Of a DNA stretch of 56,433 nt, positions 1,939 to 16,686 are shown one piece after another. Numbering within the stretch: position 1 is the first letter of the stretch; each line of letters starts with the position of its first letter. The stretch lies in assembly GCA_027063305.1 (NCBI GenBank), contig JAMORY010000012.1, positions 1 to 56,433 of the forward strand, written 5' to 3'. The position numbers and the translations under genes were made by a program. Origin of the DNA: Sulfurovum sp. Lineage in GTDB: Bacteria > Campylobacterota > Campylobacteria > Campylobacterales > Sulfurovaceae. Under the pieces are notes generated by a model that was not told the DNA's origin, ran no database searches, and saw only the letters and a program-made list of their open reading frames with translations.

Positions 1939-2430
1939 ATGAAAGACCCAAACGATATTCAATATGACGATATCCCCACTACCCCCGAAGAGATGGCAGC
2001 ATGGGAGGCGAAGTTCGGTAATCAGAACGACACACCTGTAGGTGGTGTTGAGAGCCGTTTTGAAACAGTAGAAGAGAAGACATTCAAACCTGAAGATGCC
2101 GAGCCCGATGAAGAGATGAAAGAGATGGTCATCGAGCAACTTAAAACCATCTATGACCCTGAACTGCCTGTAGACATCTACAACTTAGGGCTCATTTACG
2201 ATGTGGACTGCTGGAAAAACCCTGTAAGCAAACAAAGCGAGTGCAAAGTAACCATGACACTGACTTCTGCCACCTGTTCCATGAGTGAAGTGATCGTCGA
2301 CCTTGTACGTTCCATCCCTGCCCGTATGGGTGGAAAGCTGGCTTCTGTCGATGTAGAACTGGTATTCGATCCACCATGGGATCAGAGTAAGATGAGTGAT
2401 GAAGCCAAGTTGGCGATGGGGATGCTATGA
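1939..2430 (+). CDS. sufT: SufT-like MIP18/DUF59 Fe-S maturation protein
   Basis: This 163-residue protein has an acidic N-terminal extension (about residues 1-55) and a C-terminal MIP18/DUF59 domain (about 56-163) with the typical motifs TIYDPELPVDIYNLGLIYDV and TLTSATCSMSEVIVDLV; the Cys in the second motif is the conserved family cysteine. Such proteins (SufT, and PaaD in a different pathway) help deliver Fe-S clusters to target proteins. An AAAAAAGGA ribosome binding site lies upstream of the ATG. The position after sufD and sufE supports a role in Fe-S assembly. Its stop codon overlaps the stop codon of the convergent kpsS gene by six bases, leaving no room for a separate terminator. Confidence 0.85.
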   Translation: MKDPNDIQYDDIPTTPEEMAAWEAKFGNQNDTPVGGVESRFETVEEKTFKPEDAEPDEEMKEMVIEQLKTIYDPELPVDIYNLGLIYDVDCWKNPVSKQSECKVTMTLTSATCSMSEVIVDLVRSIPARMGGKLASVDVELVFDPPWDQSKMSDEAKLAMGML

Positions 2431-3639
2431 TGTAGAGGAGTAGGTTTCATCCTGCTCCAACTCTACAGGGAACATCCCATAGAAACTCCCATTAAGTTGC
2501 GTATTCTCGATCAGGTACTGTCTAAACTTCTGATACAATTGAAGATCAGGTTTTTTATGGTTACGCCAGAACTTACGTAAAGAGATACCTTTATTCGTAA
2601 GCCCTTTCATATCATAGATAGCATCACCTAATGTAATGGTCGGAATGCCGTATGAGACAGACGTCAACCCAACCGTACTGTTGATCGTTACTGTCCCTAT
2701 CGCATGCTTTAAACATGAGGGGAGGAAAACATCATGTACAACAAGAACCCGTTTATCGATACCAAGCAGTATTGCTTGTTCAAGTATGAAATTCCGGTAG
2801 TTCTTTCGTCCTCTATCTACGGGATGGTGTTTGAAAAGTAAATATCTATCATCCGGTGCATGCCGTGCAAAAGACTCCAGTACTTCAATAATGAACTTTT
2901 CTATAGAGCGATAATGGGAGTGTTGCAGGATCTGAAAATCATTATGGGTCTGCAAAGGAACAAAGTAATATCTCTTCGACAATTCACCGGTAATAAGAGG
3001 AAGGTACTTTCGCTCCGTCAGTGCGTACAATCCTTTTCTAAAGACTCCTCTGATCCCATGAAAAAGCTCCTTGATCGCAGAGAACTCCCTGTGGTGTTCA
3101 TAGTGAGGATATTTAAACTGAAAAATATTGGAGAGTCCATAGTAGAGTGCGGCACTCATGACCATTTTATACTTACTTTGCTTAGCATGCTTGGGTTCAG
3201 GCGTAGGAACTTCCTGAAGTTCATTGTAAAAAGATGCTTCTCTAGGAAGCGTACTAAAGCCGTTCACACCGAACTTTTCCAAGGTTACATAGTGAGGTCG
3301 TAAGTAGCCCTCTTCAAAAACAAAAACATCTATCCCCTTTTCAAAAGCGATCTTACGTGCAATTCTCTGATAGTATCTACAATCCCCAAAAAGGAATATC
3401 TTATCTATCTGCTTCTCTTCAAGAAAATCCGCAATATACTTCGGCCAATTCCGAGGTGTATCTCTATAAGGAATCGTATTGTCACGATAAGAAAAGAACT
3501 GATCCCCCATATTAAAACAGATCTTAAAAGTATATGCTCCACGAAGGCGAAAACGTTTATCGAGGCGTTTAAAAAAGCTTCCCATAGGACCTTGCAGCAG
3601 TAGTATGTTCTTGCCCTTGATTTCGCCTATGCTATTCAC
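2425..3639 (-). CDS. kpsS: KpsS capsule lipid-anchor Kdo transferase
   Basis: This 404-residue protein resembles KpsS, the cytoplasmic enzyme that puts the first beta-Kdo on the phosphatidylglycerol anchor of ABC-exported (group 2) capsules. Visible marks are the N-terminal LLLQGPMGSFF, the segment FVFEEGYLRPHYVTLEKFGVN (about residues 126-146, the EEGY-RP motif), the KHHPVDRG motif near residue 270, and TINSTVGLTSVSYGIPTITLG near 320-340. The length fits the family. It is the last gene of the capsule operon and its start overlaps the end of the KpsC C-terminal-half gene by eight bases, so the two are probably translated in a coupled way. Its stop overlaps sufT-like on the opposite strand. 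Confidence 0.9.
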   Translation of the reverse strand: MNSIGEIKGKNILLLQGPMGSFFKRLDKRFRLRGAYTFKICFNMGDQFFSYRDNTIPYRDTPRNWPKYIADFLEEKQIDKIFLFGDCRYYQRIARKIAFEKGIDVFVFEEGYLRPHYVTLEKFGVNGFSTLPREASFYNELQEVPTPEPKHAKQSKYKMVMSAALYYGLSNIFQFKYPHYEHHREFSAIKELFHGIRGVFRKGLYALTERKYLPLITGELSKRYYFVPLQTHNDFQILQHSHYRSIEKFIIEVLESFARHAPDDRYLLFKHHPVDRGRKNYRNFILEQAILLGIDKRVLVVHDVFLPSCLKHAIGTVTINSTVGLTSVSYGIPTITLGDAIYDMKGLTNKGISLRKFWRNHKKPDLQLYQKFRQYLIENTQLNGSFYGMFPVELEQDETYSSTS

Positions 3640-4735
3640 CGAGGAGTACCTTTATAAGCTGTTGAATTTTCCGTGATATAAAATTACGAATATCAATGCT
3701 TGTTTTATAAAAAATATCGGTATTATAACGTGTTTTCATTAGCTCAATGTTAGCAAGCGTAACTTCTACTTCACATTCTTTATTACTTAATGGATCAATA
3801 TACCTAGGATATAATATTAAAGTTGCCGCAACAAGCTCATCCAATGTACGATCTTTTACTCTTCGTTTACAAACTTTTACATCATTTGTTAATCCCCATC
3901 CAGCGTAGAAAGGCATTCCATAAGTAAATACAATCTTTCCACGTAAAAGTGATTCAAAACCTACCAAAGAAGTCATAGTGTGCACTTCATCTCCATGTTC
4001 AAGAACAGAGTCCAAACTTACATCCGTTATAACATTATCGGCAAAAGATAAAGCTTGTTCTAAAGGGATATTACCTTTTCTATTTCCCACAAGAACATCG
4101 GGGTGAGGTTTATAAATAATATAACTATCAGGTCTTTTTTTCCTTACTGCTTGAAGGAGTTCCATGTTGGTCATTCCTCCGGCACCATAAATAATAGATG
4201 CATCATCTTCAACCTGTCCGGGGACGATAATAACCTTCTGCCCTTTTTTTAGACCTTCTAAGTAAATTTTGTTATCAGGGTTTATATTGTATTTAGAAAG
4301 TTTCTTCTCAACTAAATACATTCGAAGTTTCTTAGCACGGCTACGTAGGTCATCATCAAATGAATATGTATTGAGTAGATATTCAAGATCACTCTCCTGT
4401 ATCGGGTCAAAGTATATCCCTCGACGATCAAAGACCAAAGAGTATGGTTTTGTCAGATCCGATCCCAGAGAGAGTGAACGGATAAATCCATCTTCTACAC
4501 GGTAAAGTGAAATATGGTGTGCCCTGGCATATACTTCAACTTCAGAAAATGGTTTTTTACCCCAGATATAGATCTTGCTTTCATGATCAAGTCCGTTAGA
4601 CTTTGCTTGCTCAAGTGACTGAGAAAAATAACATTTTCCCTCTTTTTCAAAAAAAGGTTTGATATATATTCTTTTCCAGAAAGAAAAGCCAAAAAGAAAT
4701 AATTTCAATTGATTTTTTTGCACGATATAACCCAT
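3632..4735 (-). CDS. kpsC: KpsC C-terminal-half Kdo transferase (separate gene)
   Basis: KpsC normally is one protein of about 670-700 residues with two glycosyltransferase domains that alternate in building the beta-Kdo linker of group 2 capsules. This 367-residue protein corresponds to the second domain: it has VEDGFIRSLSLGSDL (about residues 80-94), YSLVFDRRGIYFDP, a KPHPDVLVGNRKGN motif and the FYAGWGLT motif near the end. The first domain is encoded by the adjacent upstream gene; the two overlap as TAATG at 4733-4737. The split is clean, with each half carrying its own conserved motifs, so this looks like a gene fission, not a degraded kpsC. The start is the ATG in the overlap. Confidence 0.85.
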   Translation of the reverse strand: MGYIVQKNQLKLFLFGFSFWKRIYIKPFFEKEGKCYFSQSLEQAKSNGLDHESKIYIWGKKPFSEVEVYARAHHISLYRVEDGFIRSLSLGSDLTKPYSLVFDRRGIYFDPIQESDLEYLLNTYSFDDDLRSRAKKLRMYLVEKKLSKYNINPDNKIYLEGLKKGQKVIIVPGQVEDDASIIYGAGGMTNMELLQAVRKKRPDSYIIYKPHPDVLVGNRKGNIPLEQALSFADNVITDVSLDSVLEHGDEVHTMTSLVGFESLLRGKIVFTYGMPFYAGWGLTNDVKVCKRRVKDRTLDELVAATLILYPRYIDPLSNKECEVEVTLANIELMKTRYNTDIFYKTSIDIRNFISRKIQQLIKVLLGE

Positions 4736-5709
4736 TATATTATTTTAGGGTATTCTACCCTTCGTTGCTTTATTATCTCCATGATCGTATCGATAATATC
4801 CGAATCTCTCATTTTGTATGGATTATAATAACGTGTATAGAGAATGTATGCTCCTGCAAACAGCTCTTCTACACTCAAGTTCCGATCTCTTCTTTTTAAA
4901 ATCTTCTCTATCTCTTCACTCTTAACGTTTAACGCTACATTTCCAAGACTCCATCCTGCATAAAATGGTAGACCATACAGCTTTACCCCTTTCCCCAATA
5001 ATAAAGCTTCAAAACCCATCTGCGATGTTTGTGTATAGACCACATCAAACACTTCGAGCAGGACTATTGGATTGATGTTCTCCGTAATGACCTTGCAGTG
5101 TGCTTTAGCGTAGTCTACATCTACATTGGACTCTTTTTTCCCTGCCAGTACATCGGGGTGAACCTTCACATAGACTTCAGCATCAGGATACTCCACTATT
5201 GCATCGCGTATCATCGCTTGTGGATCTTGAGATGCCAGTCCATACCGGAGCGATGCATCACCTGCCGTCTGGGCGACGATAAGTACTTTTTTCGTACTGC
5301 TTTTCAAATATGCCGGCAGTTCAAGCGGTGCGTTGTTGTATTTGGAGATCTTATGCTCTTTGATAAGCGCTATGGCTCTATCTGCCTGCTGCATCAGTGC
5401 ACTGTCTGTTGCAAAATCGTAGGTATTTAAGATGTTTTCAAGCTTTGAAGGGGTGGTGGCGTCATAGTATATGCCCATATCATCTTCAACCAAAGAAAAA
5501 GAGGGACTCCCCTCTACACCCAAACCGATAGAGCGGATAAAACCATCTTCAAGAAGAATAAAATTACTATGGTATTTTTTTGCTAATGCTATAGCCTTTT
5601 GTCCAGACTTTTTACGTCCCCAGCCATAAAAACATATAGGTTCTTTACTTTGAAAAAAAGGAAGGAAACACTTCTTAATCTCTACAAAATTCTTACTACT
5701 TTCGATCAA
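4735..5709 (-). CDS. kpsC: KpsC N-terminal-half Kdo transferase (separate gene)
   Basis: This 324-residue protein corresponds to the first transferase domain of KpsC. It has CFYGWGRKKSGQKA, LLEDGFIRSIGLGVEGSPS, a VKVHPDVLAGKKESN motif and FYAGWS near the end, which are the expected KpsC landmarks. The first recognisable start is a TTG at 5709, preceded by AAGAAAG. The frame stays open further upstream, and a much stronger ribosome binding site (GAAGGAGA, 5741-5748) sits seven to eight bases before an in-frame GTA codon (5731-5733), so the true start may lie there or may have decayed. It is coupled to the C-terminal-half gene by a TAATG overlap, which would keep the two halves in balance. Confidence 0.83.
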   Translation of the reverse strand: MIESSKNFVEIKKCFLPFFQSKEPICFYGWGRKKSGQKAIALAKKYHSNFILLEDGFIRSIGLGVEGSPSFSLVEDDMGIYYDATTPSKLENILNTYDFATDSALMQQADRAIALIKEHKISKYNNAPLELPAYLKSSTKKVLIVAQTAGDASLRYGLASQDPQAMIRDAIVEYPDAEVYVKVHPDVLAGKKESNVDVDYAKAHCKVITENINPIVLLEVFDVVYTQTSQMGFEALLLGKGVKLYGLPFYAGWSLGNVALNVKSEEIEKILKRRDRNLSVEELFAGAYILYTRYYNPYKMRDSDIIDTIMEIIKQRRVEYPKII

Positions 5710-5770
5710 CTTTCTTGAAATAGTATAGTTTACGATAGTATCTCCTTCACCTTCTCTACTTTATTCAGAA

Positions 5771-6877
5771 TCAACGACACACACGTTCTGATAACCATGT
5801 TATACGTTCTTTATAGTCCATATTCTCGAACAAGGTATCTTCATAAGCAATATAATAGGCTTTTACCTCTTTTAAGATACCATTCGTTAGAAGAGATGAA
5901 ATATCTTGAATCAAAGCATTATTGACTGCTACATTACGATAGTATTCATCTAATAGAGGTGAAGAAGGAAGGGCTATTGGTCTATCTTTAAAAAAAACAT
6001 GTGTAGGAATCTCTCTGTCCAATAACTGCGTTTCCATTGCCGATATATCACAAAAAGCTTCCTTAATTGGAATAGTATCATCTTGCGATATATACATCTT
6101 ATTAGACTTAAAATAATAGTGAAGAGGTTTTCCTATGAATTTTAGATTTACCTCTCTTACACGTACCGTAATGCCTTCATCAATAGCATACCGTATGGAC
6201 TGATAAAGATAATAGAGATACCGTGGATCCCTATGCCCTAAGTTTGGATGTATTTGTATAACGAGATCATCTAAGTTATTCTCTTTCATATATGAAATCA
6301 AAACAAAAAAGTTTTTCCCATCTCTTGAAATACTTGTGTAGTTTTCAACTTCTAACCCACCTTCCCATGTTGGTGCATACAGAATACTTTTTGTATTACT
6401 GCTGTAGATATATTTGGCATTTCCAATAAAGGTATTTCCCATTTGAATTAGTTTCCCGTTCTCTATATCACAATTTGAGAATATACCACTTTCCAATAAC
6501 CTATCTACACCAGCCTTCCCTGCAACGATCACATAATCATAAATTCTCAATATAGGTTTGACTGAAGGCAGTTTATTACTCTCTCCATGTGTAACAAAAA
6601 TATGTTTCGCCTCCCGATGGGCCACTACTCTACAATTAGACTGAGCATTAAAAAGGTAGAAAACGATACTTTTCTCTAATTTGGGAAAATTACTATAATT
6701 TGAAAAGGTTATATAATTTATGTGATATTTACGAAGATCAGCTAGAAAAGTTTTATTTTCTCTATATAGCTTAAAAATAACGGTACAATCAGGGGTAAAA
6801 ACACCACTCTTATAATAAGAGATCAGCTGAGTGATCGCTCCTTTTATTTTCGTATCTATATAAATGTATTTTTTCAT
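5771..6877 (-). CDS. CDP-glycerol/ribitol phosphotransferase family protein
   Basis: This 368-residue protein resembles the TagB/TagF/TarL group, cytoplasmic enzymes that transfer polyol phosphate from CDP-glycerol or CDP-ribitol to a growing polymer. The key sites are present: FVTHGESNK (the HG-x-x-x-K motif) about residue 94, LYAPTWEGG about 167-175, VIQIHPNLGHRD (HP motif) about 207-218, and CDISAMETQLLDREIP near 278-293. It is shorter than Gram-positive polymerases, closer to primase-like or capsule-type members. It lies in the capsule operon with a CDP-ribitol synthase gene, so ribitol-phosphate transfer is the likely role; the exact acceptor cannot be read from sequence. Confidence 0.75.
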   Translation of the reverse strand: MKKYIYIDTKIKGAITQLISYYKSGVFTPDCTVIFKLYRENKTFLADLRKYHINYITFSNYSNFPKLEKSIVFYLFNAQSNCRVVAHREAKHIFVTHGESNKLPSVKPILRIYDYVIVAGKAGVDRLLESGIFSNCDIENGKLIQMGNTFIGNAKYIYSSNTKSILYAPTWEGGLEVENYTSISRDGKNFFVLISYMKENNLDDLVIQIHPNLGHRDPRYLYYLYQSIRYAIDEGITVRVREVNLKFIGKPLHYYFKSNKMYISQDDTIPIKEAFCDISAMETQLLDREIPTHVFFKDRPIALPSSPLLDEYYRNVAVNNALIQDISSLLTNGILKEVKAYYIAYEDTLFENMDYKERITWLSERVCR

Positions 6878-7698
6878 TTAATTTCCAATATTTTATAGAT
6901 TCTTTTAATATTTTTACCATCTTTTCCACTCATTACAGTAGTATAAAGTTTATCTCCTCTAAATGTCAAACCTTCTAGCTCCCATTTTTTTCCCTCTCTT
7001 TTAGCTAAAGATTTTCCAGTATACAGTTGGAATTTTTTTATTAAACTTCCATAAAAATCATAGATAACCAAATATTTTGGAGTTTTGATCTTTTTATCTC
7101 CAGATAATGCATATATATATCCATCTTTTACTGCTAATCCTTGAAATGCTTGTTCTTTTTGCTGTTGAACAGAAGAGAGCAAAAAAGTGTATATTGGATA
7201 AGGGTACTCCTCTGATAAAACATCTTCCGTTTTATAAATACGTATCATATTATAGTTCTTAACAACAATATATAAACCATTCTCTGAAACCGAAGGCGTA
7301 TTAAATCCAGAACTAAGCCAAACATCTCTTGTTAAGACCACTCTGCCATTATCAATCTTAAAAAATGCAACACCGTGATTATTTTTTGATGTTGTTATCA
7401 AATAATCACTATATTTTCCTTTTAAAATACTCAAGTCTTGTCCATGAGAAGAATAATTAATAATCAATTGTTTTTCTTTCTCTCCTTTCTTATTTAAAAA
7501 AGAGAGAATAATCTCTTTATCATTATTCGTTTGAGAGATAATCCAACTATTATAATAGGACGTGATTCCCTGTACTACATGCCCTGATTTATATGTGTTA
7601 TGTAACTTTACTTTTGCATATAACTTATTTTTTTGTATAAAATCAATAGCCTTAATCTCAGTTAAGCCCATAAGTATGATAATAATAATTTTATACAT
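6874..7698 (-). CDS. Secreted TagC-like beta-propeller protein
   Basis: This 274-residue protein begins with a hydrophobic signal-like segment (IIIIILMGL, cleavage perhaps after about residue 17). The rest looks like blades of a beta-propeller: VVQGITSYYNSWIISQT, FFKIDNGR, AFQGLAVKDGYIYALSGD, YLVIYDFYGSLIKKF and WELEGLTFRGDKLYTTVMSG. The QG-x-A-x-x-x-x-Y-x-Y and Y-D-x-x-G signatures recall the TagC/DinC proteins of teichoic acid loci and the related phage P68 receptor-binding propeller. It overlaps the next gene by four bases. A periplasmic or surface role with a polyol-phosphate polymer fits the neighbours, but TagC itself has no established reaction, so no function is assigned. The base composition is strongly AT-rich. 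Confidence 0.6.
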   Translation of the reverse strand: MYKIIIIILMGLTEIKAIDFIQKNKLYAKVKLHNTYKSGHVVQGITSYYNSWIISQTNNDKEIILSFLNKKGEKEKQLIINYSSHGQDLSILKGKYSDYLITTSKNNHGVAFFKIDNGRVVLTRDVWLSSGFNTPSVSENGLYIVVKNYNMIRIYKTEDVLSEEYPYPIYTFLLSSVQQQKEQAFQGLAVKDGYIYALSGDKKIKTPKYLVIYDFYGSLIKKFQLYTGKSLAKREGKKWELEGLTFRGDKLYTTVMSGKDGKNIKRIYKILEIK

Positions 7699-7699
7699 T

Positions 7700-8743
7700 C
7701 TATAACTGTTCTACCGTTTTAATTAAATTTTTCTTAAATTCATCATGTATAGATAACGCTTTATCAAACAGTATATTTACTATATATTCTCTACTTTCTT
7801 TTAGTGGATCCTGCAAATGTAGCAATTGCAATAAATCAATAAGTTCTTGATACTCAGTCCAATAATAGAGAGAGTCCTGAATTATATCAGGGATAAGAGA
7901 ATGTCGTTCTTCTTCATCTTCAATATATACCAATACAGGCGTACCATAAGTTAAAAGATATGGTATGAAATTTTTATTATCCGTTATAATCAATGAAACT
8001 TTAAAGGCAAACTCATCAACTATCTTTTTTGTAGTAACAGGAATAATTTTATTACCTATACCCGAGATAGTTGTGATACTCTCTAAATTTTGATATATAT
8101 CTTTTTTTTCCTCTGGAAGATATATATAACTCTTAAGATTTTGTTCTACATTCGCAAAATATATTTTTTCTAAAATTGCGTTTTTAGGCTCTACTAATAC
8201 AAGAGAAGTATTTTGTTCTTTTGCTGTATATAAAATATTCTCTTTTATCTGAGGTTTCCCAATAGACTTAAGTTTTAAATGCCCAATATTTTTAATAGAT
8301 TCTTTAAATCGTGTTATTGCATACTCCCCTCCAGCCCAAAACTCATCATATGCTCTATATGATTTATTGTAATTACTTAACCAATCAGAATTTTTTGTAC
8401 CAATAAAAATATGTTTTAAATGATTAAATCTAAGAAGATGAATATTTCTTGCTAAGTTTGAGGTATATAGCACTACTTTCAAATCTGGCTGAGCATTGAC
8501 TACAGTTTCAACATCAACAGGTGTTTTTGCATAACATATTTGCAGTTTTGGAAACTGTTTTGTAAGTTGGGTAAAACTTTTTTCATCTCTTACCAAAATA
8601 GAAAAGTCAATACCGCTTTTTACGATTTCACTCAACCAGAAATTGACATGATTGACTGTTAGTTTTGGATCGGCAGTATGTAACATAACCCTATTATTAC
8701 TATTTTTCTTCAATCTTCTGATATCAACATCTGCCATCTTCAA
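7700..8743 (-). CDS. Degenerate CDP-polyol phosphotransferase paralogue
   Basis: This 347-residue protein is clearly related to the protein encoded immediately upstream (8724-9950). Shared stretches include MLHTADPKL against LLHTGENAS, LLRFNHLKHIFIG against LLKFNEIKHIFIG, and AYDEFWAGGEYAITRF against VYDENWVAGEAHIDRF. The catalytic motifs of the family are missing: HIFIGHGDSDK has become HIFIGTKNSDW (His lost), the STWEG segment has become VEPKNA, and the HP motif and the CDIS motif are gone (SLIITDNKNF instead). It therefore looks like a pseudoenzyme, perhaps a partner or regulator of the active paralogue. The frame is intact, so it is not simply a dead gene. Its start overlaps the upstream gene by 20 bases. 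Confidence 0.7.
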   Translation of the reverse strand: MKMADVDIRRLKKNSNNRVMLHTADPKLTVNHVNFWLSEIVKSGIDFSILVRDEKSFTQLTKQFPKLQICYAKTPVDVETVVNAQPDLKVVLYTSNLARNIHLLRFNHLKHIFIGTKNSDWLSNYNKSYRAYDEFWAGGEYAITRFKESIKNIGHLKLKSIGKPQIKENILYTAKEQNTSLVLVEPKNAILEKIYFANVEQNLKSYIYLPEEKKDIYQNLESITTISGIGNKIIPVTTKKIVDEFAFKVSLIITDNKNFIPYLLTYGTPVLVYIEDEEERHSLIPDIIQDSLYYWTEYQELIDLLQLLHLQDPLKESREYIVNILFDKALSIHDEFKKNLIKTVEQL

Positions 8744-9950
8744 TCCTCTTCAATTGTTCTATAAACTCATCATTTAATGTTTCATCTCTTCCCAATATAT
8801 ACTCCATAGCCTCTTCTCTTTTTTCAGCCAAGTAGTCATTGCCATTTACAATCACTTCTTCAATTTTATCCATAAGCTCTTCAATAGACGAAAAGACATA
8901 GGTATAATCTTCATAACTCATACTACTCTGAGAAAGTTTGATATCTTTCTCTTTTGGCATATATACAAAAATAGGCGTATTGGCTGCCAAAGACTCCGAA
9001 ATTACCGCCGAAATATCACAAATGAAAACATTGGATATTTTAATTATCTCTTCTACTGGCATAGTTTTATCGTACAAATTATAGTCTACGCCTGAATTGG
9101 ATAAAAGAGCATTCAGTTTTGCATTTGTTTTTAATAGTTTTGTATCTCTTCTTCCTACCCATGGATGAAGTTTAATACCGATTGTGTCAAAAATATTTTT
9201 ATCTTTTATCTCTTCAAAAAACTTATCTATCAAATAGACTGATGTATAGTCTTGTTCTTCATATACCCCTTCCCATGTAGACAAATAAAGGAGATTTAAA
9301 TTACCGTTAAATCTCTCTTGCCAAGGAGTTTGAGAGATTAGAAGTGTTTCTTTCAGGTTTGGCCTTCCGACTTTTACCTGTTTTAACCCACTAAAATCAA
9401 ATCCTGCATTCCTGAAACGATCGATATGTGCTTCTCCGGCTACCCAGTTTTCATCATAGACCCTAAAGTATTTATGGGCACTGGCTGTTTTGTCACTGTC
9501 TCCATGTCCTATAAATATATGCTTTATTTCATTAAACTTTAAAAGGTGAAGATTGTTTCCAGTATTTGAAGGGTAAAAACATGCTTTTAAAAAAAGCATC
9601 TTCTCAATGTATCTTTCAACCTCTTTATCCCCTTTGGCATAAAGAAGAGTAAGTTGAGGATACTTCTTTTTTACAAGTTCAAAAAGTTCATTGTTACGAA
9701 CCATCACAACAAACTTAATTTCAGCATTTATAAAATGTGGAATCCAAAGATCTAAATGGCTTAAACCTGAAGCATTTTCTCCAGTATGTAATAAATGTGT
9801 ATACTTAAAAAATGGATTAAACTGATAATTAGCAGTAGACTTCCCTTTAGTTGAAGTATTTGAAGACCTATCTACACTACCTAATCGTTTCTTCCACATA
9901 TCTTTAAAAAAAAGTACCGGATCCTTTTGAAGTTTAGACCATTTACTCAT
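8724..9950 (-). CDS. CDP-glycerol/ribitol phosphotransferase family protein
   Basis: This 408-residue protein belongs to the TagF/TarL-like polyol-phosphate transferases. Visible motifs are KHIFIGHGDSDK (HG-x-x-x-K, about residues 135-146), LLYLSTWEGVYEEQDY (about 220-235), IGIKLHPWVGRRD (HP motif, about 258-270) and FICDISAVISESLAANTPIFVY (about 310-331). All the sites lost in the neighbouring paralogue are kept here, so this is the likely active copy. The first 45 residues are a basic extension without recognisable domain. It lies four bases after the CDP-ribitol synthase gene, which suggests it consumes that product to build the capsule polymer. Confidence 0.75.
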   Translation of the reverse strand: MSKWSKLQKDPVLFFKDMWKKRLGSVDRSSNTSTKGKSTANYQFNPFFKYTHLLHTGENASGLSHLDLWIPHFINAEIKFVVMVRNNELFELVKKKYPQLTLLYAKGDKEVERYIEKMLFLKACFYPSNTGNNLHLLKFNEIKHIFIGHGDSDKTASAHKYFRVYDENWVAGEAHIDRFRNAGFDFSGLKQVKVGRPNLKETLLISQTPWQERFNGNLNLLYLSTWEGVYEEQDYTSVYLIDKFFEEIKDKNIFDTIGIKLHPWVGRRDTKLLKTNAKLNALLSNSGVDYNLYDKTMPVEEIIKISNVFICDISAVISESLAANTPIFVYMPKEKDIKLSQSSMSYEDYTYVFSSIEELMDKIEEVIVNGNDYLAEKREEAMEYILGRDETLNDEFIEQLKRIEDGRC

Positions 9951-9953
9951 CTA

Positions 9954-11333
9954 CTAAACCTTTTGTATCTTAACATCAATGATCTGCCCAGTTAAACGAC
10001 TCAATAAAGCATTTAATGATGCATATGCCACATCTTTCGCATCCAAGAGTGTAGAAGGATCCTCTTTCCCAAAATTACTTGTTCTCATAGGAGTTGCTGT
10101 ACGCTCAGGATTGATACAGTTAATCCTTACATCTTTACTTAACCACTCTTCCGCTAAAGCTTGCGTTAAATTCACGATTGCTGCTTTAGATGAACTATAG
10201 AGTGCATAGTTCCCTCTACCTCTTGTATATGAACTGGAAGTAAAGTTCAATAGTTGTCCTGATGTTTTTTCCAAATACTGAATTGATTCTTTTGCTACAT
10301 TGACAGCACCAAGATAATTAACGTTAATTATATCCAATACCTTCTCATATGAGATATTCTGTAAAGGCTCTTTAATCAAGATCGAAGCAGTATTAACAAC
10401 AAAATCGATCTTTCCTTCTTTATCATACACATATGCTAGATCACGCTTAATGTCAGATATAGAAGAGACATCCGTATTTGTTTCGCTTCTACTAAATGTA
10501 TAGACCTTTGCATTATTTGCTTGTGCAATCTCTGCAATCTCTTTACCAATACCATATGAACCACCAAAAACAACAAGTACTTTTTGGTAAAGTAACTTTG
10601 CATAATACTCAGAAGAGTATTTTTGTGTTAACTGGGTTGTTTTCAACTGAAAAAGTTTATCAGCCATAAAGATATCTTGTGCATGCGTAATCTTTATATT
10701 TTTCATACTTCCATCAACAACATATATCTCTTCATGTGGTAAATATTTCTTTACAACACCACAATCATCCGTCGGTTTAAAACTACTATCTTCACTTGCC
10801 AACGCATATGCTTTTTTGATCGTTTCGAGCCTAAAACATTGTGGGGTCTGTCCCTGCATCATTTTTGCTCTTTCCGGTATATTTTTAATAATCTTCTTAT
10901 CAACCTCGATAATCGTATCTGTTGCCGGGATTGCAACATCAACTGCATTATAATGCTGCAATGCCTCAACACATTTTTCTATAATACGCGTATCTACAAA
11001 AGGACGAACCGCATCGTGAAAAATCATATTGAGATTTTTTTCTTCTAAACTATAGGCTTCAATAGCACTGAGAGATGAATCTTTTCTCTCTTCACCCCCA
11101 GAAAGGATCTTTTTTACTTTAGCAAAATTATTATCATTTACGATCTCTTCGATCTTCCATATCCAATCTGGATGTATAACAATACATATCTCATCGATCA
11201 ATGCATGTTGTTCAAAAACTTCGATCGTATGCTCTATAATACTCTTTCCGGCTAGTTTGGCAAACTGTTTTGGAATCTCAAGACCGAACCTACTTCCTGT
11301 CCCACCTGCTAAAATAATACCTATATTTCTCAT
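9954..11333 (-). CDS. Bifunctional CDP-ribitol synthase (cytidylyltransferase-SDR fusion)
   Basis: This 459-residue protein joins two enzymes. Residues 1 to about 230 form an IspD/TarI-type cytidylyltransferase with ILAGGTGSRFGLEIPKQF and the substrate-site segment DAVRPFVD. Residues about 245-459 form a short-chain dehydrogenase with the nucleotide loop VVFGGSYGIGKE and the catalytic YSSSK. This is the layout of Haemophilus influenzae Bcs1/Acs1, which reduces ribulose 5-phosphate and makes CDP-ribitol; the length is nearly the same. A housekeeping IspD role is less likely, because Campylobacterota usually fuse IspD to IspF and because the gene sits in a capsule operon. It would supply the activated sugar alcohol for the two intact transferases next door. 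Confidence 0.82.
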   Translation of the reverse strand: MRNIGIILAGGTGSRFGLEIPKQFAKLAGKSIIEHTIEVFEQHALIDEICIVIHPDWIWKIEEIVNDNNFAKVKKILSGGEERKDSSLSAIEAYSLEEKNLNMIFHDAVRPFVDTRIIEKCVEALQHYNAVDVAIPATDTIIEVDKKIIKNIPERAKMMQGQTPQCFRLETIKKAYALASEDSSFKPTDDCGVVKKYLPHEEIYVVDGSMKNIKITHAQDIFMADKLFQLKTTQLTQKYSSEYYAKLLYQKVLVVFGGSYGIGKEIAEIAQANNAKVYTFSRSETNTDVSSISDIKRDLAYVYDKEGKIDFVVNTASILIKEPLQNISYEKVLDIINVNYLGAVNVAKESIQYLEKTSGQLLNFTSSSYTRGRGNYALYSSSKAAIVNLTQALAEEWLSKDVRINCINPERTATPMRTSNFGKEDPSTLLDAKDVAYASLNALLSRLTGQIIDVKIQKV

Positions 11334-11353
11334 ATTAAATTCGTCCTTTATAT

Positions 11354-12457
11354 TTAATCTTGATGATTATGGATAATACCGATGATCGTACTTACAATAC
11401 TATAGATAAATAACAATACAACCAATATGGTAAACACATCCCATAGTTTATTAGGATATGTATAATCGTCTGCTAACGTCGGTTTGGCGACTACAATAAG
11501 ATGCTTTGCTTTTTGTGCTACCTCTATCTTAACCTCTTCCTGGTTGATGAGGGTTTGGCGGTAGACCTCTTTGGCAAACTCCATGTCACTTTTAAGTAAT
11601 TGGAACTCAAAAACATTCGCATTAAGCTCTTTACCTTGCTTTGTCCCTGAAAGTTGTTTTTTTACCCTTGCAATGGAAGCACGGATGTTTCGGATGTTCT
11701 CTTTAAGCATCTTGACTTCACGACTGTTCGGATTGAAGGTTTTCAGCTTGGTAGCATACTCCACCTCACTCTTGACAAGCTCTGTTTCAAGTTCCGTTAG
11801 AATAGTGATCTTTCGTTCTACATCAAGTGACGGATCAATGGTATGATGGCTGTTTTGATAATCTATAAGCTTTTTGATAGCTTCTACAAAAAGCTTTCTC
11901 TTCTCTTGACGCTGCTTCTCAATAAAGCGTAATGCGATCTGTGCATTCTCTTTTGCAAATTGATTAATGATCTCTTCGGATCTTTTAATAATACTTTGCA
12001 GTATCGATTGCGCAATCTTAGGATCAGTATGTACAAATGTCAATTCCAATGTACCTGACGGGTCATCATAAACAACATGTAGATCTTGATTATATTTCTC
12101 TATAATATGCTGTTTATTGGCACGAAAATATGGGATATTTGAATCAGGATAAAGACGTTGTGCAAAATCAAGTTCATCTGATATATAGTGTTTTGTCAGA
12201 TCGAATCTACTATCAATATAGGAGAACATCTCATTTGATCTGATATAAAGCTCCAAAACTTTCGAATCCTGCATAGTACTACTACCCTGCCCTAAAAGCA
12301 TCTCACTTAAGTTAACAGTCTGCTTCTTAGAGAGATCTTTTAAAAGCGTAATACTCTTAGACTCATAACGCTCGGACTCTATTGTGACAATATATGTTAC
12401 TGCTAAAAGAAAAAGCGTAACGAAGAGTATACGCAGTAGCCATTTTACTTTTGTCAT
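11354..12457 (-). CDS. kpsE: KpsE-like capsule export inner-membrane protein
   Basis: This 367-residue protein has the KpsE/BexC/CtrB layout: an N-terminal membrane segment (about residues 5-27), a long periplasmic domain with predicted coiled coil (about 150-300, rich in E, K, Q and R), and a C-terminal membrane segment (LWDVFTILVVLLFIYSIVST). KpsE links the KpsMT transporter to the outer-membrane exporter. An earlier in-frame ATG at 12487 would add ten residues but overlaps kpsT and has no ribosome binding site; the ATG at 12457 follows AAGGGAAAATAAGAG and is preferred, five bases after the kpsT stop. Confidence 0.85.
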   Translation of the reverse strand: MTKVKWLLRILFVTLFLLAVTYIVTIESERYESKSITLLKDLSKKQTVNLSEMLLGQGSSTMQDSKVLELYIRSNEMFSYIDSRFDLTKHYISDELDFAQRLYPDSNIPYFRANKQHIIEKYNQDLHVVYDDPSGTLELTFVHTDPKIAQSILQSIIKRSEEIINQFAKENAQIALRFIEKQRQEKRKLFVEAIKKLIDYQNSHHTIDPSLDVERKITILTELETELVKSEVEYATKLKTFNPNSREVKMLKENIRNIRASIARVKKQLSGTKQGKELNANVFEFQLLKSDMEFAKEVYRQTLINQEEVKIEVAQKAKHLIVVAKPTLADDYTYPNKLWDVFTILVVLLFIYSIVSTIIGIIHNHQD

Positions 12458-12461
12458 TCTC

Positions 12462-13130
12462 TTATTTTCCCTTTTTATTGATGTCATTATAGCGGCTTAT
12501 CGCTTCATCAATGTTGTCATAATAGTAGAGTTGACCATCATGTATAAGCAAGCCCGTTTGACACATTTGTTGAAGTGTTTTCATCTCATGACTTACCAAA
12601 ATAACATGGCAATTCTCTATTTTTTTCAATAGCACATCTTTGGCTTTTTTCTTAAAACGCGCATCTCCGACCGAAAGCGTCTCATCGATGATCATGTAAT
12701 CAAAGTCAAATGCCAGACTCAGACCGAATCCAAGTCTTCCTTTCATTCCCGAAGAGTAGGTTTTGATAGGCATATCGAAGTAATCACCCAATTCTGAGAA
12801 CTCTTTAACGTAAGCGATCACCTCTCTTGTCTCATCTTTACTTAAACCATACAGATTACAGACGAACTTTACATTTTGCGCACCGGTCATATTACCTACA
12901 AATCCACCACCTAATCCAAGTGGCCATGAGAATGTATTATTGGAATGTATCGTACCTTGATTAGGAAATTCTATTTTTCCAAGCATACGCATTAGAGTGG
13001 ATTTCCCTGCACCGTTCCTTCCAAGAATGCCGATGTTTCCATCGGGAAGTGTCATTGTTACGTCTTTAAGAATATACTTCTTCCCTGCATTCGTTCGAAA
13101 ATACTTGGTTACATTTGTTAGTTCTATCAT
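12462..13130 (-). CDS. kpsT: KpsT capsule ABC transporter ATPase
   Basis: This 222-residue protein is an ABC ATPase of the KpsT/BexA/CtrD group. It has the Walker A loop GRNGAGKST (about residues 37-45), the signature YSSGMKGRLGFGLSLAFD, the Walker B MIIDETLSVGD and the switch His in HVILVSHEMK. It lacks the extra C-terminal carbohydrate-binding domain found in Wzt-type O-antigen exporters, which fits a group 2 capsule transporter. It overlaps kpsM by four bases (13127-13130), so ATPase and permease are made together at the inner membrane to export the finished lipid-linked polymer. Confidence 0.93.
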   Translation of the reverse strand: MIELTNVTKYFRTNAGKKYILKDVTMTLPDGNIGILGRNGAGKSTLMRMLGKIEFPNQGTIHSNNTFSWPLGLGGGFVGNMTGAQNVKFVCNLYGLSKDETREVIAYVKEFSELGDYFDMPIKTYSSGMKGRLGFGLSLAFDFDYMIIDETLSVGDARFKKKAKDVLLKKIENCHVILVSHEMKTLQQMCQTGLLIHDGQLYYYDNIDEAISRYNDINKKGK

Positions 13131-13921
13131 TGTGAGATAATCCTTTTTTCAAGACGACGATAGAGCCAAAGACCTATAAATAAAGGTATAACCGTCCACA
13201 TCAGTATATAACGATAATCTACAAAACGATCATCCAACCCTACAATATAGGCACCATGTATCATCTCCATAAAGTGCACTAAAGGATTATAAAGAAGAGC
13301 ATCCTGTGCTGCAGAAGGAAGTGAAATAAGGGGAAAAAAAACCGCTGAAAAAATAAGCAATGCAAAAGATATAATACCAATAAACTTTCCAACACTGACA
13401 AAAAACGTATTGCCCACAGCAACTACAAGTCCTACCCCTAAAGAGAAAAGAACAAGCCATATATATCCTGCAAATAACATAAGTGGATTCTCTGGAAGTA
13501 AGTTATCCTGTTCAGTAATAAAGCCGACGGCAAGAAAGATCACAATAATGATAGAGGAGAGGAACATCTCAACAAGTACACGTGAAAAGATCGTATCTAT
13601 CGGTTTTACCTGCTTATAGGCAAAAAGCCCCCTATTTGCTTGAAATGCACCTTTTGATGCATTCAATATATGTTTAAAAAGGTTGAAAGCAATAAACCCT
13701 GAAGCCATAAATACGGCCAAATTATAGTGTGTGGCCATTGATTTACCTGTATGGTTCATAATAGCAACACGTATTGCAACAAAGATAAATATTTGTAAGA
13801 AAGGTTCAAAAAAAGTCCAGAAAAGTCCCGATTTACCTACACTGATACGCATATCTAACTCACGAAGAAAAAGTGCTTTTATCACAGCAGTAAAAATATG
13901 TAGGGGCTTCCTTGCAACCAT
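13127..13921 (-). CDS. kpsM: KpsM capsule ABC transporter permease
   Basis: This 264-residue protein has the features of the ABC-2 polysaccharide permeases (KpsM, BexB, CtrC): a basic N-terminal stretch with FLRELDMRISVGKSGLFWTFFEPF, and about six hydrophobic segments that include IFIFVAIRVAIMN, FMASGFIAFNLF, IIIVIFLAVGFI and ISFALLIFSAVFFPLISLP, ending with a basic tail. It forms the membrane channel with KpsT. The gene follows the exporter lipoprotein gene at a spacing of eight bases. Confidence 0.92.
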   Translation of the reverse strand: MVARKPLHIFTAVIKALFLRELDMRISVGKSGLFWTFFEPFLQIFIFVAIRVAIMNHTGKSMATHYNLAVFMASGFIAFNLFKHILNASKGAFQANRGLFAYKQVKPIDTIFSRVLVEMFLSSIIIVIFLAVGFITEQDNLLPENPLMLFAGYIWLVLFSLGVGLVVAVGNTFFVSVGKFIGIISFALLIFSAVFFPLISLPSAAQDALLYNPLVHFMEMIHGAYIVGLDDRFVDYRYILMWTVIPLFIGLWLYRRLEKRIISQ

Positions 13922-13929
13922 ACGCTTTC

Positions 13930-14685
13930 TTACTCCGAAAGATATTTCAACGTTACGAAAGGAGAAGCGATCGCCGTAAATGTCTTAAATGGTGACGTAT
14001 AATTATCTGATTCAACTCTGAACTTTTTCCATTTATCAGGTTTAACATAAACGATATCGTTGGGCCTAAGCATAAGACTTGCATAGTTCATCGCATCAAA
14101 ATTTGTAAGATCCACTTTACGCATACGCATACCGTTCTCTTTGGGTGAGATTATCACAATGCTATTGCGAACAGCTGCATCTGTTAATCCGCCAGAAAAT
14201 GCTATTGCTTCAAACAATGTCATTTTCTCTTTATCGATCCTTATCACACCTTGTTTATAAACTTCCCCCAATACATAGATACGCTTATTCATGATCTCCA
14301 CATATACAGAAGGATTAGTTAACTCTTTTTTATAAAGTGCTTCTATCTTATCCGAAGCTTCCGTTTGTGTCAGTCCGGCAACTTTTACTTTACCTATAAG
14401 AGGAAGTTTAATATATCCTGCGGCATTTACTAAAATACCATCTGGATTAATATCTTCACCTAACTTTCCAGAACCGTTCTCTGCCGATATTTGCCCCGGA
14501 TCTTTATAAAGAATAACTTTAAGTCTATCTTGGGGAAGTATCTTATATTCAATACTAGCTGCTGTAACTTTTTGCTCTTCGATTGTATGATGGGTTTGCA
14601 CAAGTTCATAATTTGATCTATCTGTACATCCGCTTATCACTGCCACTACAATAAAAAAAAGTATCAATTTTAAATAATATATCAT
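13930..14685 (-). CDS. kpsD: Wza/KpsD-type polysaccharide export lipoprotein
   Basis: This 251-residue protein starts with a lipoprotein signal (VVAVISGC, Cys about residue 20). It then has a polysaccharide export domain (about 45-140, YKILPQDRLKVILYKDPG and YIKLPLIGKVKVAGLTQTEA) and one SLBB domain (about 145-210, IYVLGEVYKQG and FEAIAFSGGLTDAA). It is the outer-membrane part of the capsule export path. It is much shorter than E. coli KpsD (over 500 residues) and closer to a minimal Wza/BexD; the last 30 residues (FKTFTAIASPFVTLKYL) could be the amphipathic helix that lines an outer-membrane pore, by analogy with Wza. It is the first gene of the minus-strand capsule operon. Confidence 0.82.
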   Translation of the reverse strand: MIYYLKLILFFIVVAVISGCTDRSNYELVQTHHTIEEQKVTAASIEYKILPQDRLKVILYKDPGQISAENGSGKLGEDINPDGILVNAAGYIKLPLIGKVKVAGLTQTEASDKIEALYKKELTNPSVYVEIMNKRIYVLGEVYKQGVIRIDKEKMTLFEAIAFSGGLTDAAVRNSIVIISPKENGMRMRKVDLTNFDAMNYASLMLRPNDIVYVKPDKWKKFRVESDNYTSPFKTFTAIASPFVTLKYLSE

Positions 14686-14829
14686 ATGTGCTATCTATTC
14701 CAATCAGAATCTCTATTTAAGATTTTTGTATAGTAATAATTATAGCTAAAATTCATTATAGGTTTGTAAACAGTACACATAGAATTTAGGCTAAGTACCC
14801 TATAATAAACAAAAAAGGCTTTTTATCAC
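14686..14829. promoter_or_regulatory. Divergent promoter region between kpsD and ubiX
   Basis: This AT-rich gap separates the minus-strand capsule operon from plus-strand ubiX and must hold promoters for both. On the plus strand a TATAAT lies about 25 bases before the ubiX ATG, in CCCTATAATAAAC, without a clear -35. On the minus strand a TATAAT within GCTATAATTATTAC, upstream of kpsD, is a candidate -10. Missing -35 boxes are usual for the housekeeping sigma factor of Campylobacterota. No operator could be recognised. Confidence 0.45.
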
Positions 14830-15351
14830 ATGAAACTAGTAGTCGCCATTACCGGTGCGAGCGGGGTTGTTTTGGGTCAGAAGTTCGTTGACTATCTTCC
14901 CGAAGATGTTGAAGCGCATGTGGTCGTCTCCGATAATGCTTTGACCGTCGAGCACTTTGAGAATAAGCGGGTCACACTCCACAATGCACAGAATATCGCC
15001 GCTTCTATCTCCAGCGGATCGTTCAGGGTCGATGCGACTGCCATCATCCCCTGCTCTATGAACACGCTTGCAAAGATCGCCTGCGGTATCAGTGACAACC
15101 TCCCTACCCGTGTTGCCGCCGTAGCGCTCAAAGAGCAAAAAAAGCTCCTGCTCGCTCCAAGAGAGCTCCCTTTCTCCGCCATTGCGCTGGAGAATATGCA
15201 TAAACTCGCCTCCTTGGGTGTCATCATCGCCCCTCCTGTCATGGGCTACTATGCTAAGCATCAGTCTCTTGAGGAGATGGAGAGGTTCATCATCGGGAAG
15301 TGGTATGACGTGTTGGGTATTCCCAACGATCTGTATAATCGATGGAAATAA
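14830..15351 (+). CDS. ubiX: UbiX flavin prenyltransferase
   Basis: This 173-residue protein matches UbiX/Pad1, which adds a dimethylallyl group to FMN to make the prenylated flavin cofactor of UbiD-type decarboxylases. The N-terminal VVAITGASGVVLGQKFVDYL is the FMN-binding loop, IIPCSMNTLAKIACGISDNL carries the conserved PCSM-TLA motif, and LLLAPRELPFSAIALENM is the characteristic LAPRE-P motif. The length is slightly under the usual 185-200 residues. In Campylobacterota this cofactor would serve menaquinone or futalosine-route decarboxylases; the partner ubiD is not in the window. Its TAA stop is directly abutted by repeat copy C. Confidence 0.92.
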   Translation: MKLVVAITGASGVVLGQKFVDYLPEDVEAHVVVSDNALTVEHFENKRVTLHNAQNIAASISSGSFRVDATAIIPCSMNTLAKIACGISDNLPTRVAAVALKEQKKLLLAPRELPFSAIALENMHKLASLGVIIAPPVMGYYAKHQSLEEMERFIIGKWYDVLGIPNDLYNRWK

Positions 15352-15513
15352 ATGAATAATTAATAATGAATAATGAATAGTTTTGGTATGCTTTTCTATC
15401 GAAAAGCTTTTATTTGTTATGAGGGAACAATGACTATCTACACATCTAATAGAAGCATTGCACAGCAATGCCTACCGACATCATTCACCATTCATCATTC
15501 ATCATTCATCATT
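15350..15513. repeat. Heptamer-bounded palindromic repeat element, copy C (inverted, diverged)
   Basis: The left boundary array (about 15350-15380) consists of TAATGAA-type units, the right boundary array (about 15480-15513) of TTCATCA units. The core contains the reverse complement of the core in copies A and B: TTGGTATGCTTTTCTAT then GAAAAGCTTTTATT, with hairpin GCTTTTC-TATC-GAAAAGC at 15390-15407; further right, AACAATGACTATC weakly matches the rest. A second perfect hairpin, GCATTGC-ACA-GCAATGC, is at 15455-15471. The element occupies nearly the whole gap between ubiX and coaD. The heptamer sequence differs from copies A and B, but the unit length and the orientation rule are the same. 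Confidence 0.8.
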
Positions 15514-15547
15514 GCAGATCTCGCAGGAGCACACCTGTGAGATCTGC
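15514..15547 (+). promoter_or_regulatory. Hairpin enclosing the coaD ribosome binding site and start codon
   Basis: The left arm GCAGATCTCGCAGG (15514-15527) and right arm CCTGTGAGATCTGC (15534-15547) pair over 14 positions with one G-U pair, around a six-base loop. The AGGAG ribosome binding site lies at the end of the left arm and in the loop, and the GTG start codon (15537-15539) lies in the right arm. In the mRNA this fold should hide the start of coaD. Whether it is a real control switch or a by-product of the adjacent repeat insertion cannot be decided from sequence. Confidence 0.6.
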
Positions 15548-16013
15548 CATTTACCCCGGAACCTTCGACCCCATTACCAATGGTCACCTCGATATCATAA
15601 AACGTGCATGTAAGATGTTCGATCGTATTATTGTCGCTGTTGCGGCGTCGGAAGCGAAAAAACCGATGTTCACACTTGAACAGCGGATTCAGATGGTACA
15701 AGCGGCAACCACCGATCTGCCTAAAATAGAGGTGGTGGGATTCGATAAACTTCTCGTTGATCTTAGTGATGACCTGCAAGCCAATATTGTCGTTAGAGGA
15801 TTACGCGCGGTCAGTGATTTTGAGTATGAACTTCAAATGGGCTATGCCAATGCTTCATTGAAACCTGAGCTTGAGACCATCTACCTGATGCCAAACCTCA
15901 ATCATGCCTTTGTCAGCTCCTCGGTCGTACGGGCCATTTTAGCCTATGAGGGCAAGGTTGAACATCTGCTTCACCCTGAAGTCTATCGTATCGTTCGGGA
16001 GATCAGAGACTGA
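15537..16013 (+). CDS. coaD: Phosphopantetheine adenylyltransferase
   Basis: This 158-residue enzyme joins ATP and 4'-phosphopantetheine to dephospho-CoA in CoA synthesis. It has the nucleotidyltransferase motif YPGTFDPITNGHLDII (residues 5-20, containing the T/HxGH signature) and the second motif AFVSSSVVRAI near residue 120. The GTG at 15537 is chosen because it follows AGGAG at good spacing and gives the usual family length; an upstream ATG at 15468 would add 23 residues coded by the heptamer array, which is an artefact of the stop-free strand. The TGA overlaps the tmk start as TGATG. Confidence 0.93.
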   Translation: MRSAIYPGTFDPITNGHLDIIKRACKMFDRIIVAVAASEAKKPMFTLEQRIQMVQAATTDLPKIEVVGFDKLLVDLSDDLQANIVVRGLRAVSDFEYELQMGYANASLKPELETIYLMPNLNHAFVSSSVVRAILAYEGKVEHLLHPEVYRIVREIRD

Positions 16014-16674: not shown

Positions 16675-16686
16675 TTAGGGGAAAGA

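What the first reader, a model, noticed from the sequence alone, without database searches (positions are those of the whole stretch)
5771..14685. Predicted polyribitol-phosphate (teichoic-acid-like) capsule on a Kps ABC export system
kpsD, kpsM, kpsT, kpsE, kpsC and kpsS give a full group 2 export and Kdo-anchor set. Between them lie a Bcs1-like CDP-ribitol synthase fusion and TagF/TarL-like transferases, with no ordinary sugar glycosyltransferase or nucleotide-sugar gene. By comparison with the Haemophilus influenzae type a and b capsule loci, the polymer should contain ribitol phosphate, possibly as the only repeating unit. A simple teichoic-type capsule from a marine Campylobacterota would be unusual.
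Basis: partly seen in the sequence, partly recalled or inferred. Interest (0 to 1): 0.65.

Follow-up and report, generated by a model that had tools for sequence, protein, structure and literature searches.

The report
Ribitol-phosphate capsule genes with phage-like propeller
A bacterium carries a compact gene set that most likely coats its outer surface with a teichoic-acid-like chain of ribitol phosphate, together with a secreted protein resembling the part of staphylococcal viruses that grips such chains; the same set turns up in E. coli and several other Gram-negative bacteria.

Summary
The fusion is a Bcs1-type CDP-ribitol synthase, 50% identical over 456 aa to that in the kps locus of E. 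coli EC958 (listed as K100, a ribosyl-ribitol phosphate). Of three transferase-like proteins, two keep both TagF-type catalytic histidines (TfA 8724-9950, TfC 5771-6877); the third (TfB 7700-8743) is a conserved pseudoenzyme.

TfA homologues sit beside a Bcs1-type fusion in 36 of 38 loci from a scan of named genomes. DNA for TfA, fusion, TfC and propeller is in 49 of 5,426 E. coli genomes. K100 shares fusion and TfC but has a Bcs3 homologue instead of TfA, so I infer that TfA polymerises and TfC primes. The Chromobacterium locus inspected holds only these three genes plus kps genes, favouring a backbone without obligatory sugar. No chemistry was tested. A new variant of teichoic-type group 2 capsules; the propeller is the most surprising part.

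The parts
2425..3639 (-). KpsS, beta-Kdo transferase that starts the lipid anchor
   Evidence: PF05159 262 bits; NCBIfam KpsS model 382 bits, below its cut-off of 600
3632..4735 (-). KpsC C-terminal module as a separate gene
   Evidence: PF05159 144 bits; matches the C-terminal half of full-length KpsC in E. coli L089
4735..5709 (-). KpsC N-terminal module as a separate gene
   Evidence: PF05159 133 bits; paralogue of the C module, 35% over 294 aligned
5771..6877 (-). TfC, TagF-like transferase, inferred priming (transition) transferase
   Evidence: H97 and H210 invariant in 9 of 9; homologous to TfA, E 2e-21 for the single comparison; 41% identical to the protein after the fusion in the E. 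coli EC958 (K100) locus; no Pfam hit of its own
6874..7698 (-). Secreted five-bladed propeller, inferred to bind or trim the capsule polymer
   Evidence: PF21311 25.4 bits, cut-off 23.7; phage RBPs best by profile and fold; signal-like N-terminus by eye
7700..8743 (-). TfB, pseudo-transferase paralogue of TfA
   Evidence: 36% over 152 aa with TfA; first catalytic His, TWEG and HP motifs absent in 6 of 6 and in two further members
8724..9950 (-). TfA, TagF-like transferase, inferred ribitol-phosphate polymerase
   Evidence: H149 and H262 invariant in 10 of 10; Foldseek ranks 1-17 are TagF, Bcs3 and TarL; PF04464 15.5 bits, below the cut-off
9954..11333 (-). Bcs1-type CDP-ribitol synthase: TarI-like cytidylyltransferase fused to an SDR reductase
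   Evidence: 50% over 456 aa to the EC958 (K100) fusion; catalytic motifs invariant in 15 sequences
11354..12487 (-). KpsE-like inner-membrane/periplasmic adaptor
   Evidence: 39% to the KpsE-like ORF of L051; 25% to annotated KpsE of E. coli L089
12462..13130 (-). KpsT, ABC transporter ATPase
   Evidence: teichoic-acid export ATPase models best, below cut-off; 48% to the E. coli L089 ATPase
13127..13921 (-). KpsM, ABC transporter permease
   Evidence: NCBIfam KpsM model 138 bits, below its cut-off of 300
13930..14685 (-). Short outer-membrane polysaccharide export (KpsD/Wza-type) lipoprotein
   Evidence: PF02563 62.6 bits and SLBB domains

Best explanation
The locus makes a group 2 (ABC-transporter) capsule whose backbone is ribitol phosphate, most likely a homopolymer like the poly(ribitol phosphate) of wall teichoic acid type I, built on a Kdo-lipid anchor. 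Inferred steps: the fusion reduces ribulose 5-phosphate and makes CDP-ribitol; KpsS and the two KpsC proteins build the poly-Kdo anchor from CMP-Kdo; TfC puts the first ribitol phosphate(s) on the Kdo; TfA extends the chain from CDP-ribitol with its two histidines; TfB, catalytically dead, is a structural or regulatory partner of TfA; KpsMTE and the OPX protein export the chain. The propeller, exported to the periplasm or surface, binds or trims the polyol-phosphate chain. Shown: gene content, homology, conserved catalytic residues, conserved linkage, Kdo genes. Inferred: every enzymatic activity, the polymer structure, and the roles of TfB and the propeller. My own split: ribitol phosphate in the backbone 0.8; homopolymer backbone 0.6; TfA polymerase and TfC primer 0.65; propeller acts on the polymer 0.5.
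For: Fusion 50% identical to that of EC958; EC958 is given as K100 (PMC8281228 Table 2) and its locus has a Bcs3 homologue, E 1e-142. The fusion is not the MEP-pathway IspD, since IspDF is elsewhere in the genome. 36 of 38 TfA-homologue loci hold a fusion; the two misses start at a contig edge. Fusion and TfC are shared with the K100 locus, TfA is not. TfA and TfC keep both catalytic histidines, and the TfA model matches TagF, Bcs3 and CDP-ribitol-bound TarL best. Streptomyces loci carry fusion plus TfA homologue, and two other Streptomyces species are reported to have ribitol-phosphate wall teichoic acid (PMC13274773, passages). Chromobacterium L053 has no further transferase genes. kdsA and kdsB are in the genome. 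The propeller resembles S. aureus phage RBPs, whose host has poly-ribitol phosphate wall teichoic acid (PMC4901313).
Against: No activity or polymer was measured. In the window TfA falls below the PF04464 cut-off and TfC has no Pfam hit. At the position where PMC10299916 reports Pro for glycerol-phosphate and Gly for ribitol-phosphate transferases, TfA and TfC carry Ser (HGDS/HGES), so this marker does not decide. The TfA model is weak around the first catalytic histidine (pLDDT under 50 at 148-179) and unrelated GT-B folds follow closely in VIA (17.3 against about 16). Related loci in E. coli AF16 and Alkanindiges carry further genes, one a GT2. The propeller also occurs in E. coli loci without the fusion and is absent from some cassette loci.
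Confidence: 0.6

Rival explanations
1. The polymer contains ribitol phosphate but is not a homopolymer: a sugar is added by TfC, by TfA, or by a glycosyltransferase elsewhere in the genome, as in type b / K100 (ribosyl-ribitol phosphate) or in glycosylated teichoic acids.
For: K100 and type b polymers alternate ribose and ribitol phosphate (PMC10299916 passages). E. coli AF16 adds a GT2 to the same three genes, and Alkanindiges L056 adds further genes.
Against: No such gene in the window locus or in Chromobacterium L053. TfA and TfC resemble polyol-phosphate transferases and lack a fused sugar-transferase domain.
Confidence: 0.22
2. The fusion makes another CDP-polyol (for example another pentitol), so the polymer is a polyol phosphate other than ribitol phosphate.
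For: C. jejuni HS:5 makes CDP-6-glucitol with a PF01128 cytidylyltransferase and a PF01370 reductase (PMC10918830 passages). The +3 Ser in TfA/TfC is neither the ribitol-type Gly nor the glycerol-type Pro.
Against: The reductase here is PF00106, fused as in Bcs1, and the fusion is 50% identical to that of the EC958 K100 locus over its whole length.
Confidence: 0.08
3. The propeller is unrelated to the capsule: a stray phage-derived or moonlighting gene carried along in the operon.
For: Its nearest solved relatives are phage proteins, and it is missing from several cassette loci.
Against: It overlaps or abuts its operon neighbours, looks secreted, lacks the phage stem and tower, and recurs beside polyol-phosphate genes: 3 of 9 Gram-negative loci and, in E. 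coli, locus L089 and the three other propeller loci inspected. PF21311 is otherwise absent from the 397 genomes sampled.
Confidence: 0.15

Closest known systems
E. coli kps locus of strain CFSAN061763 and the E. coli B lineage (L089)
   Same: kpsMT, TfA (41%), fusion (50%), TfC (44%), propeller (hhalign E 2.8e-38), kpsS, kpsC, kpsE.
   Different: No TfB; gene order TfA-fusion-TfC-propeller; one-piece kpsC and longer OPX. In listed E. coli B derivatives the fusion gene is annotated in two parts around an IS1 element. I found no published structure in my searches.
E. coli K100 locus (EC958) and the H. influenzae type b capsule
   Same: Bcs1-type fusion, TfC homologue in EC958, kps export and Kdo genes.
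   Different: K100 has a Bcs3-type polymerase that adds ribose; TfA and propeller were not found there. H. influenzae genes themselves were not held or compared.
A. pleuropneumoniae serotype 7 capsule with transition transferases CpsA and CpsC (PMC11666461)
   Same: Teichoic-type polymer on a Kdo glycolipid with separate priming and polymerising enzymes.
   Different: Glycerol phosphate plus galactose; LicD-type CpsC; multidomain CpsD. No LicD match at E<=0.001 in this genome.
Poly(ribitol phosphate) wall teichoic acid (TarIJL) of S. aureus
   Same: CDP-ribitol precursor and a TagF/TarL-like polymerase.
   Different: Reductase is SDR-type and fused; inferred Kdo-lipid anchor; Kps export; Gram-negative.
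Platform domain of S. aureus phage receptor-binding proteins (phi11, 80alpha, P68)
   Same: Five-bladed propeller by sequence profile and fold.
   Different: Here a single secreted domain of 274 aa, without stem or tower, inside a capsule operon.

Membership tests
Group 2 (Kps, ABC-transporter-dependent) capsule locus | KpsM, KpsT, KpsE and an OPX protein | tested here: met
   the OPX protein is a short form of 251 aa
Group 2 (Kps, ABC-transporter-dependent) capsule locus | KpsS and two-module KpsC Kdo transferases | tested here: met
   PF05159 in all three proteins; KpsC modules are encoded by two genes; the KpsS equivalog cut-off was not reached (382 against 600)
Group 2 (Kps, ABC-transporter-dependent) capsule locus | poly-Kdo lipid anchor on the polymer | not testable with these tools
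   needs chemistry; kdsA and kdsB are present
Bcs1-type CDP-ribitol synthase | cytidylyltransferase fused to an SDR with intact motifs | tested here: met
Bcs1-type CDP-ribitol synthase | makes CDP-ribitol | not testable with these tools
   no assay
TagF-like polyol-phosphate transferases (PF04464) | PF04464 curated cut-off reached by the window's own proteins | tested here: not met
   TfA 15.5 against 22.1, TfC none; orthologues reach 22.4 and 23.1. I therefore call them TagF-like at a distance and do not file them as PF04464 members
TagF-like polyol-phosphate transferases (PF04464) | two catalytic histidines | tested here: met
   TfA 10 of 10, TfC 9 of 9; lost in TfB 6 of 6
TagF-like polyol-phosphate transferases (PF04464) | TagF fold | tested here: met
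   TfA model only: Foldseek ranks 1-17, narrow lead in VIA, moderate model
TagF-like polyol-phosphate transferases (PF04464) | Gly (ribitol) or Pro (glycerol) three residues after the first histidine | tested here: inconclusive
   Ser in TfA and TfC; rule from PMC10299916
Phage_RBD_prop (PF21311) / phage receptor-binding protein | platform propeller domain | tested here: met
   25.4 against 23.7 bits
Phage_RBD_prop (PF21311) / phage receptor-binding protein | stem and tower domains of the phage protein | tested here: not met
   274 aa in all; only the platform (RBP residues about 143-424) aligns. Not filed as a phage RBP

The most novel reading that the evidence does not exclude
A three-gene module (CDP-ribitol synthase, priming transferase TfC, single-domain polymerase TfA) gives unrelated Gram-negative bacteria an outer-membrane-anchored copy of the Gram-positive poly(ribitol phosphate) teichoic acid. 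The accompanying secreted propeller is the cellular counterpart of the staphylococcal phage receptor-binding platform: it binds or trims the cell's own teichoic-type chain, and phages of ribitol-phosphate hosts may have taken their receptor platform from such genes.
Probability: 0.3. Interest if true: 0.75.

Novelty: new variant of a known kind. Interest (0 to 1): 0.55.

Why it matters
If right, it gives a minimal and widely dispersed route to a teichoic-type capsule without an ordinary sugar transferase. It would also give uncharacterised capsule loci, including one in the E. coli B lineage, a testable polymer structure. It assigns a candidate transition transferase (TfC) to the ribitol-phosphate capsules, a step that the Hib paper calls 'yet to be identified' (PMC10299916, passage). 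And it points to a secreted protein family that links capsule loci with the way staphylococcal phages recognise teichoic acid.

Tried and rejected
Fusion as the cell's MEP-pathway IspD: rejected, a separate IspDF passes its cut-off. LicD as the priming enzyme: none found at E<=0.001 in this genome. Direct PF04464 search of the genome: nothing at E<=0.001, which misses the divergent TfA/TfC. Sequence searches of TfA and TfC against the PDB found no relevant hit; the low-scoring rows were treated as noise. The +3 residue rule for donor choice did not decide (Ser). tRNA scan of 1-20000: none. Proteus mirabilis L090 and Parabacteroides L091 have the fusion, but no TfA, TfB, TfC or propeller hit was printed for them. 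The contig edge of L052 hides whether it has TfC. Only five loci had their other ORFs read by eye, each in the stretches listed. Of the 63 E. coli genomes that match without covering 80% of the query, three were inspected.

Not found in print: ten paper searches listed no paper whose title or abstract start describes a pure poly(ribitol phosphate) Gram-negative capsule or the capsule-locus propeller. The E. coli catalogue PMC13171606 (outline, passages, sections 8 and 9 read; figures not held) may draw this E. coli locus, so priority there cannot be excluded.
Full report
What is there. All capsule genes lie on the minus strand, 2425-14685. In transcription order: short OPX lipoprotein, KpsM, KpsT, KpsE, fusion, TfA, TfB, propeller, TfC, KpsC N-module, KpsC C-module, KpsS. 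Neighbouring genes abut or overlap closely. The stretch has 28-39% GC while nearby sequence is mostly 40-50%, as expected of an exchanged capsule locus. The flanking ORFs look like housekeeping genes (labels by eye). The names TfA, TfB and TfC are mine.

The precursor enzyme. The fusion carries PF01128 and PF00106 and passes NCBIfam's D-ribitol-5-phosphate cytidylyltransferase model (183.7 against 166), though it also just passes ispD. The genome has a proper IspDF elsewhere, 488.6 bits against 417. The fusion is 50% identical over 456 residues to that of E. coli EC958. EC958 is given as K100 in Table 2 of PMC8281228 (passage), and its 913-aa polymerase matches Bcs3 at E 1e-142. K100 appears as a ribosyl-ribitol phosphate in the title of a paper cited in PMC13171606. 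Across 15 fusions, including those of E. coli, Chromobacterium, Campylobacterota and two actinobacteria, the GxxxGIG, serine and YxxxK residues of the reductase and many cytidylyltransferase residues are invariant.

The transferases. TfA, TfB and TfC are paralogues. In the window none reaches the PF04464 cut-off. Of 10 TfA family members, 8 match PF04464 at E<=0.1. Distant relatives in actinobacteria and in G249 pass clearly (34.0-50.8 bits), and orthologues in Chromobacterium and E. coli just pass (22.4 and 23.1 against 22.1). The AlphaFold model of TfA (pLDDT 73.0, pTM 0.65, weak around residues 148-179) has TagF, Bcs3 and CDP-ribitol-bound TarL at Foldseek ranks 1-17. In VIA the lead over unrelated GT-B enzymes is small, 17.3 against about 16. 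TfA keeps H149 and H262 in 10 of 10, and TfC keeps H97 and H210 in 9 of 9. TfB has lost the first histidine, the TWEG and the HP motif in 6 of 6 and in two more, yet it is retained next to TfA in Campylobacterota and Microbulbifer. It is best read as a pseudoenzyme partner.

Distribution. Of 397 genomes of the phylum sample (own included), 7 have a TfA match at E<=0.001, but only G000, G160 and G166 reach 50% identity. In G160 and G166 the fusion is the neighbour as well. Of 150 genomes of relatives (own included), a full-length fusion was listed in four: G000, G040, G148 and G121; the last three have other neighbours. In the genus, 25 of 78 genomes have a KpsS match at E<=0.001, about 15 of them strong by my count; within the genus the full-length fusion was listed only in G000 and G040. 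The scan of 84,980 named species gave 38 loci. 36 hold a fusion ORF; L060 and L066 do not, and there the homologue starts at the contig edge. Nine of the 38 are Gram-negative (L050-L058): 8 of 9 have TfC (L052 ends early), 5 of 9 TfB, 3 of 9 the propeller, and 6 of 9 show kps genes, the other three being contigs under 9 kb. The scan used two short peptide patterns, so it does not measure true abundance.

E. coli. The Psittacicella fusion gene led to E. coli (51 of 5,426 genomes). The locus of CFSAN061763 reads kpsMT, TfA, fusion, TfC, propeller (annotated 'phage baseplate protein'), kpsS, kpsC, kdsB, OPX, kpsE, kpsF. 49 of 5,426 genomes hold at least 80% of that cassette by DNA; in 11 of the 18 full-length rows listed, mostly E. 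coli B derivatives, the fusion gene is annotated in two parts around an IS1 element. In EC958 the fusion and TfC (41% identical to the window's) stand with a Bcs3 homologue, and neither TfA nor the propeller is found. This exchange is the main reason for calling TfA the polymerase and TfC the transition transferase, by analogy with A. pleuropneumoniae (PMC11666461, sections 4 and 15 read). It is an inference.

Minimal loci. Chromobacterium haemolyticum L053 has kpsM, T, E, D, then TfA, fusion, TfC, then kpsC and kpsS. By inspection of its ORFs there is no other glycosyltransferase there. This favours a polymer that needs only CDP-ribitol. Against a universal homopolymer, E. coli AF16 adds a GT2 and Alkanindiges L056 adds further genes.

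The propeller. 6874-7698 begins with a signal-like stretch (by eye; also in the E. coli protein) and passes PF21311. A profile of four relatives finds phage RBPs: NF5 Gp17 (9.8e-8), 80alpha, phi11 and P68. Foldseek ranks 1-9 are these RBPs. VIA gives 80alpha Z 18.7 (rmsd 4.0, 244 aligned), phi11 17.4, P68 17.1, then glutaminyl cyclases at 16.1, with NF5 at 14.9; model pLDDT 74.4. phi11 adsorption requires GlcNAc on wall teichoic acid, which in S. aureus is typically poly-ribitol phosphate (PMC4901313, passages). A GlcNAc-sized cavity was modelled in the phi11 platform but soaking failed, so what that platform binds is itself not settled. In the phylum sample PF21311 occurs in 1 of 397 genomes, in this locus. 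In E. coli the propeller also occurs without the fusion: in LF82 and strain 631 beside a TagF-family protein, a GT29 and, where scanned in strain 631, a glycerol-3-phosphate-cytidylyltransferase-like protein (129 bits, cut-off 165), and in a plasmid fragment beside an IspD-like and a PF04464 protein. The association is thus with polyol-phosphate loci rather than with ribitol alone.

Verdict. A homopolymer is the better guess but not shown. The setting is broader than marine Campylobacterota, and the most surprising element is the propeller. Polyol-phosphate capsules are already known in Campylobacterota (C. jejuni HS:1 and HS:5; PMC11924219 and PMC10918830, passages), so I rate it a new variant of a known kind.

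Noticed in passing
L095 and L096 (E. coli LF82, strain 631), propeller at 9554-10537 and 9569-10537: A kps locus with the propeller, a PF04464 protein, a GT29 and a glycerol-3-phosphate-cytidylyltransferase-like protein annotated as pantoate ligase: probably another polyol-phosphate capsule type.
   Followed up: partly
L027 (G148), 5647-9867: A Bcs1-type fusion beside two large TagF/TarL-like proteins with HGIP (glycerol-type) and HGVG (ribitol-type) motifs, in a stretch that by eye also holds nonulosonate-type and flagellin genes.
   Followed up: no
L028 (G121), 9196-11844, and L026 (G040), 10459-14622: Fusions beside two CDP-alcohol-phosphatidyltransferase-like ORFs (L028) and beside two LicD-like ORFs (L026); labels by eye.
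   Followed up: no
window 3632-5709: kpsC is split into two genes here, and also in L051, whereas genus relatives L099, L100 and L102 carry a KpsC of 673-706 aa in one piece.
   Followed up: partly
E. coli B lineage, e.g. NC_012967.1 3020551-3026778: The same cassette is present in E. coli B and BL21 derivatives, with the fusion gene annotated in two parts around an IS1 element.
   Followed up: partly
window 1750-1888: A short repeat shows in an antisense reading frame (repeated PTSYFLL) between flanking genes.
   Followed up: no
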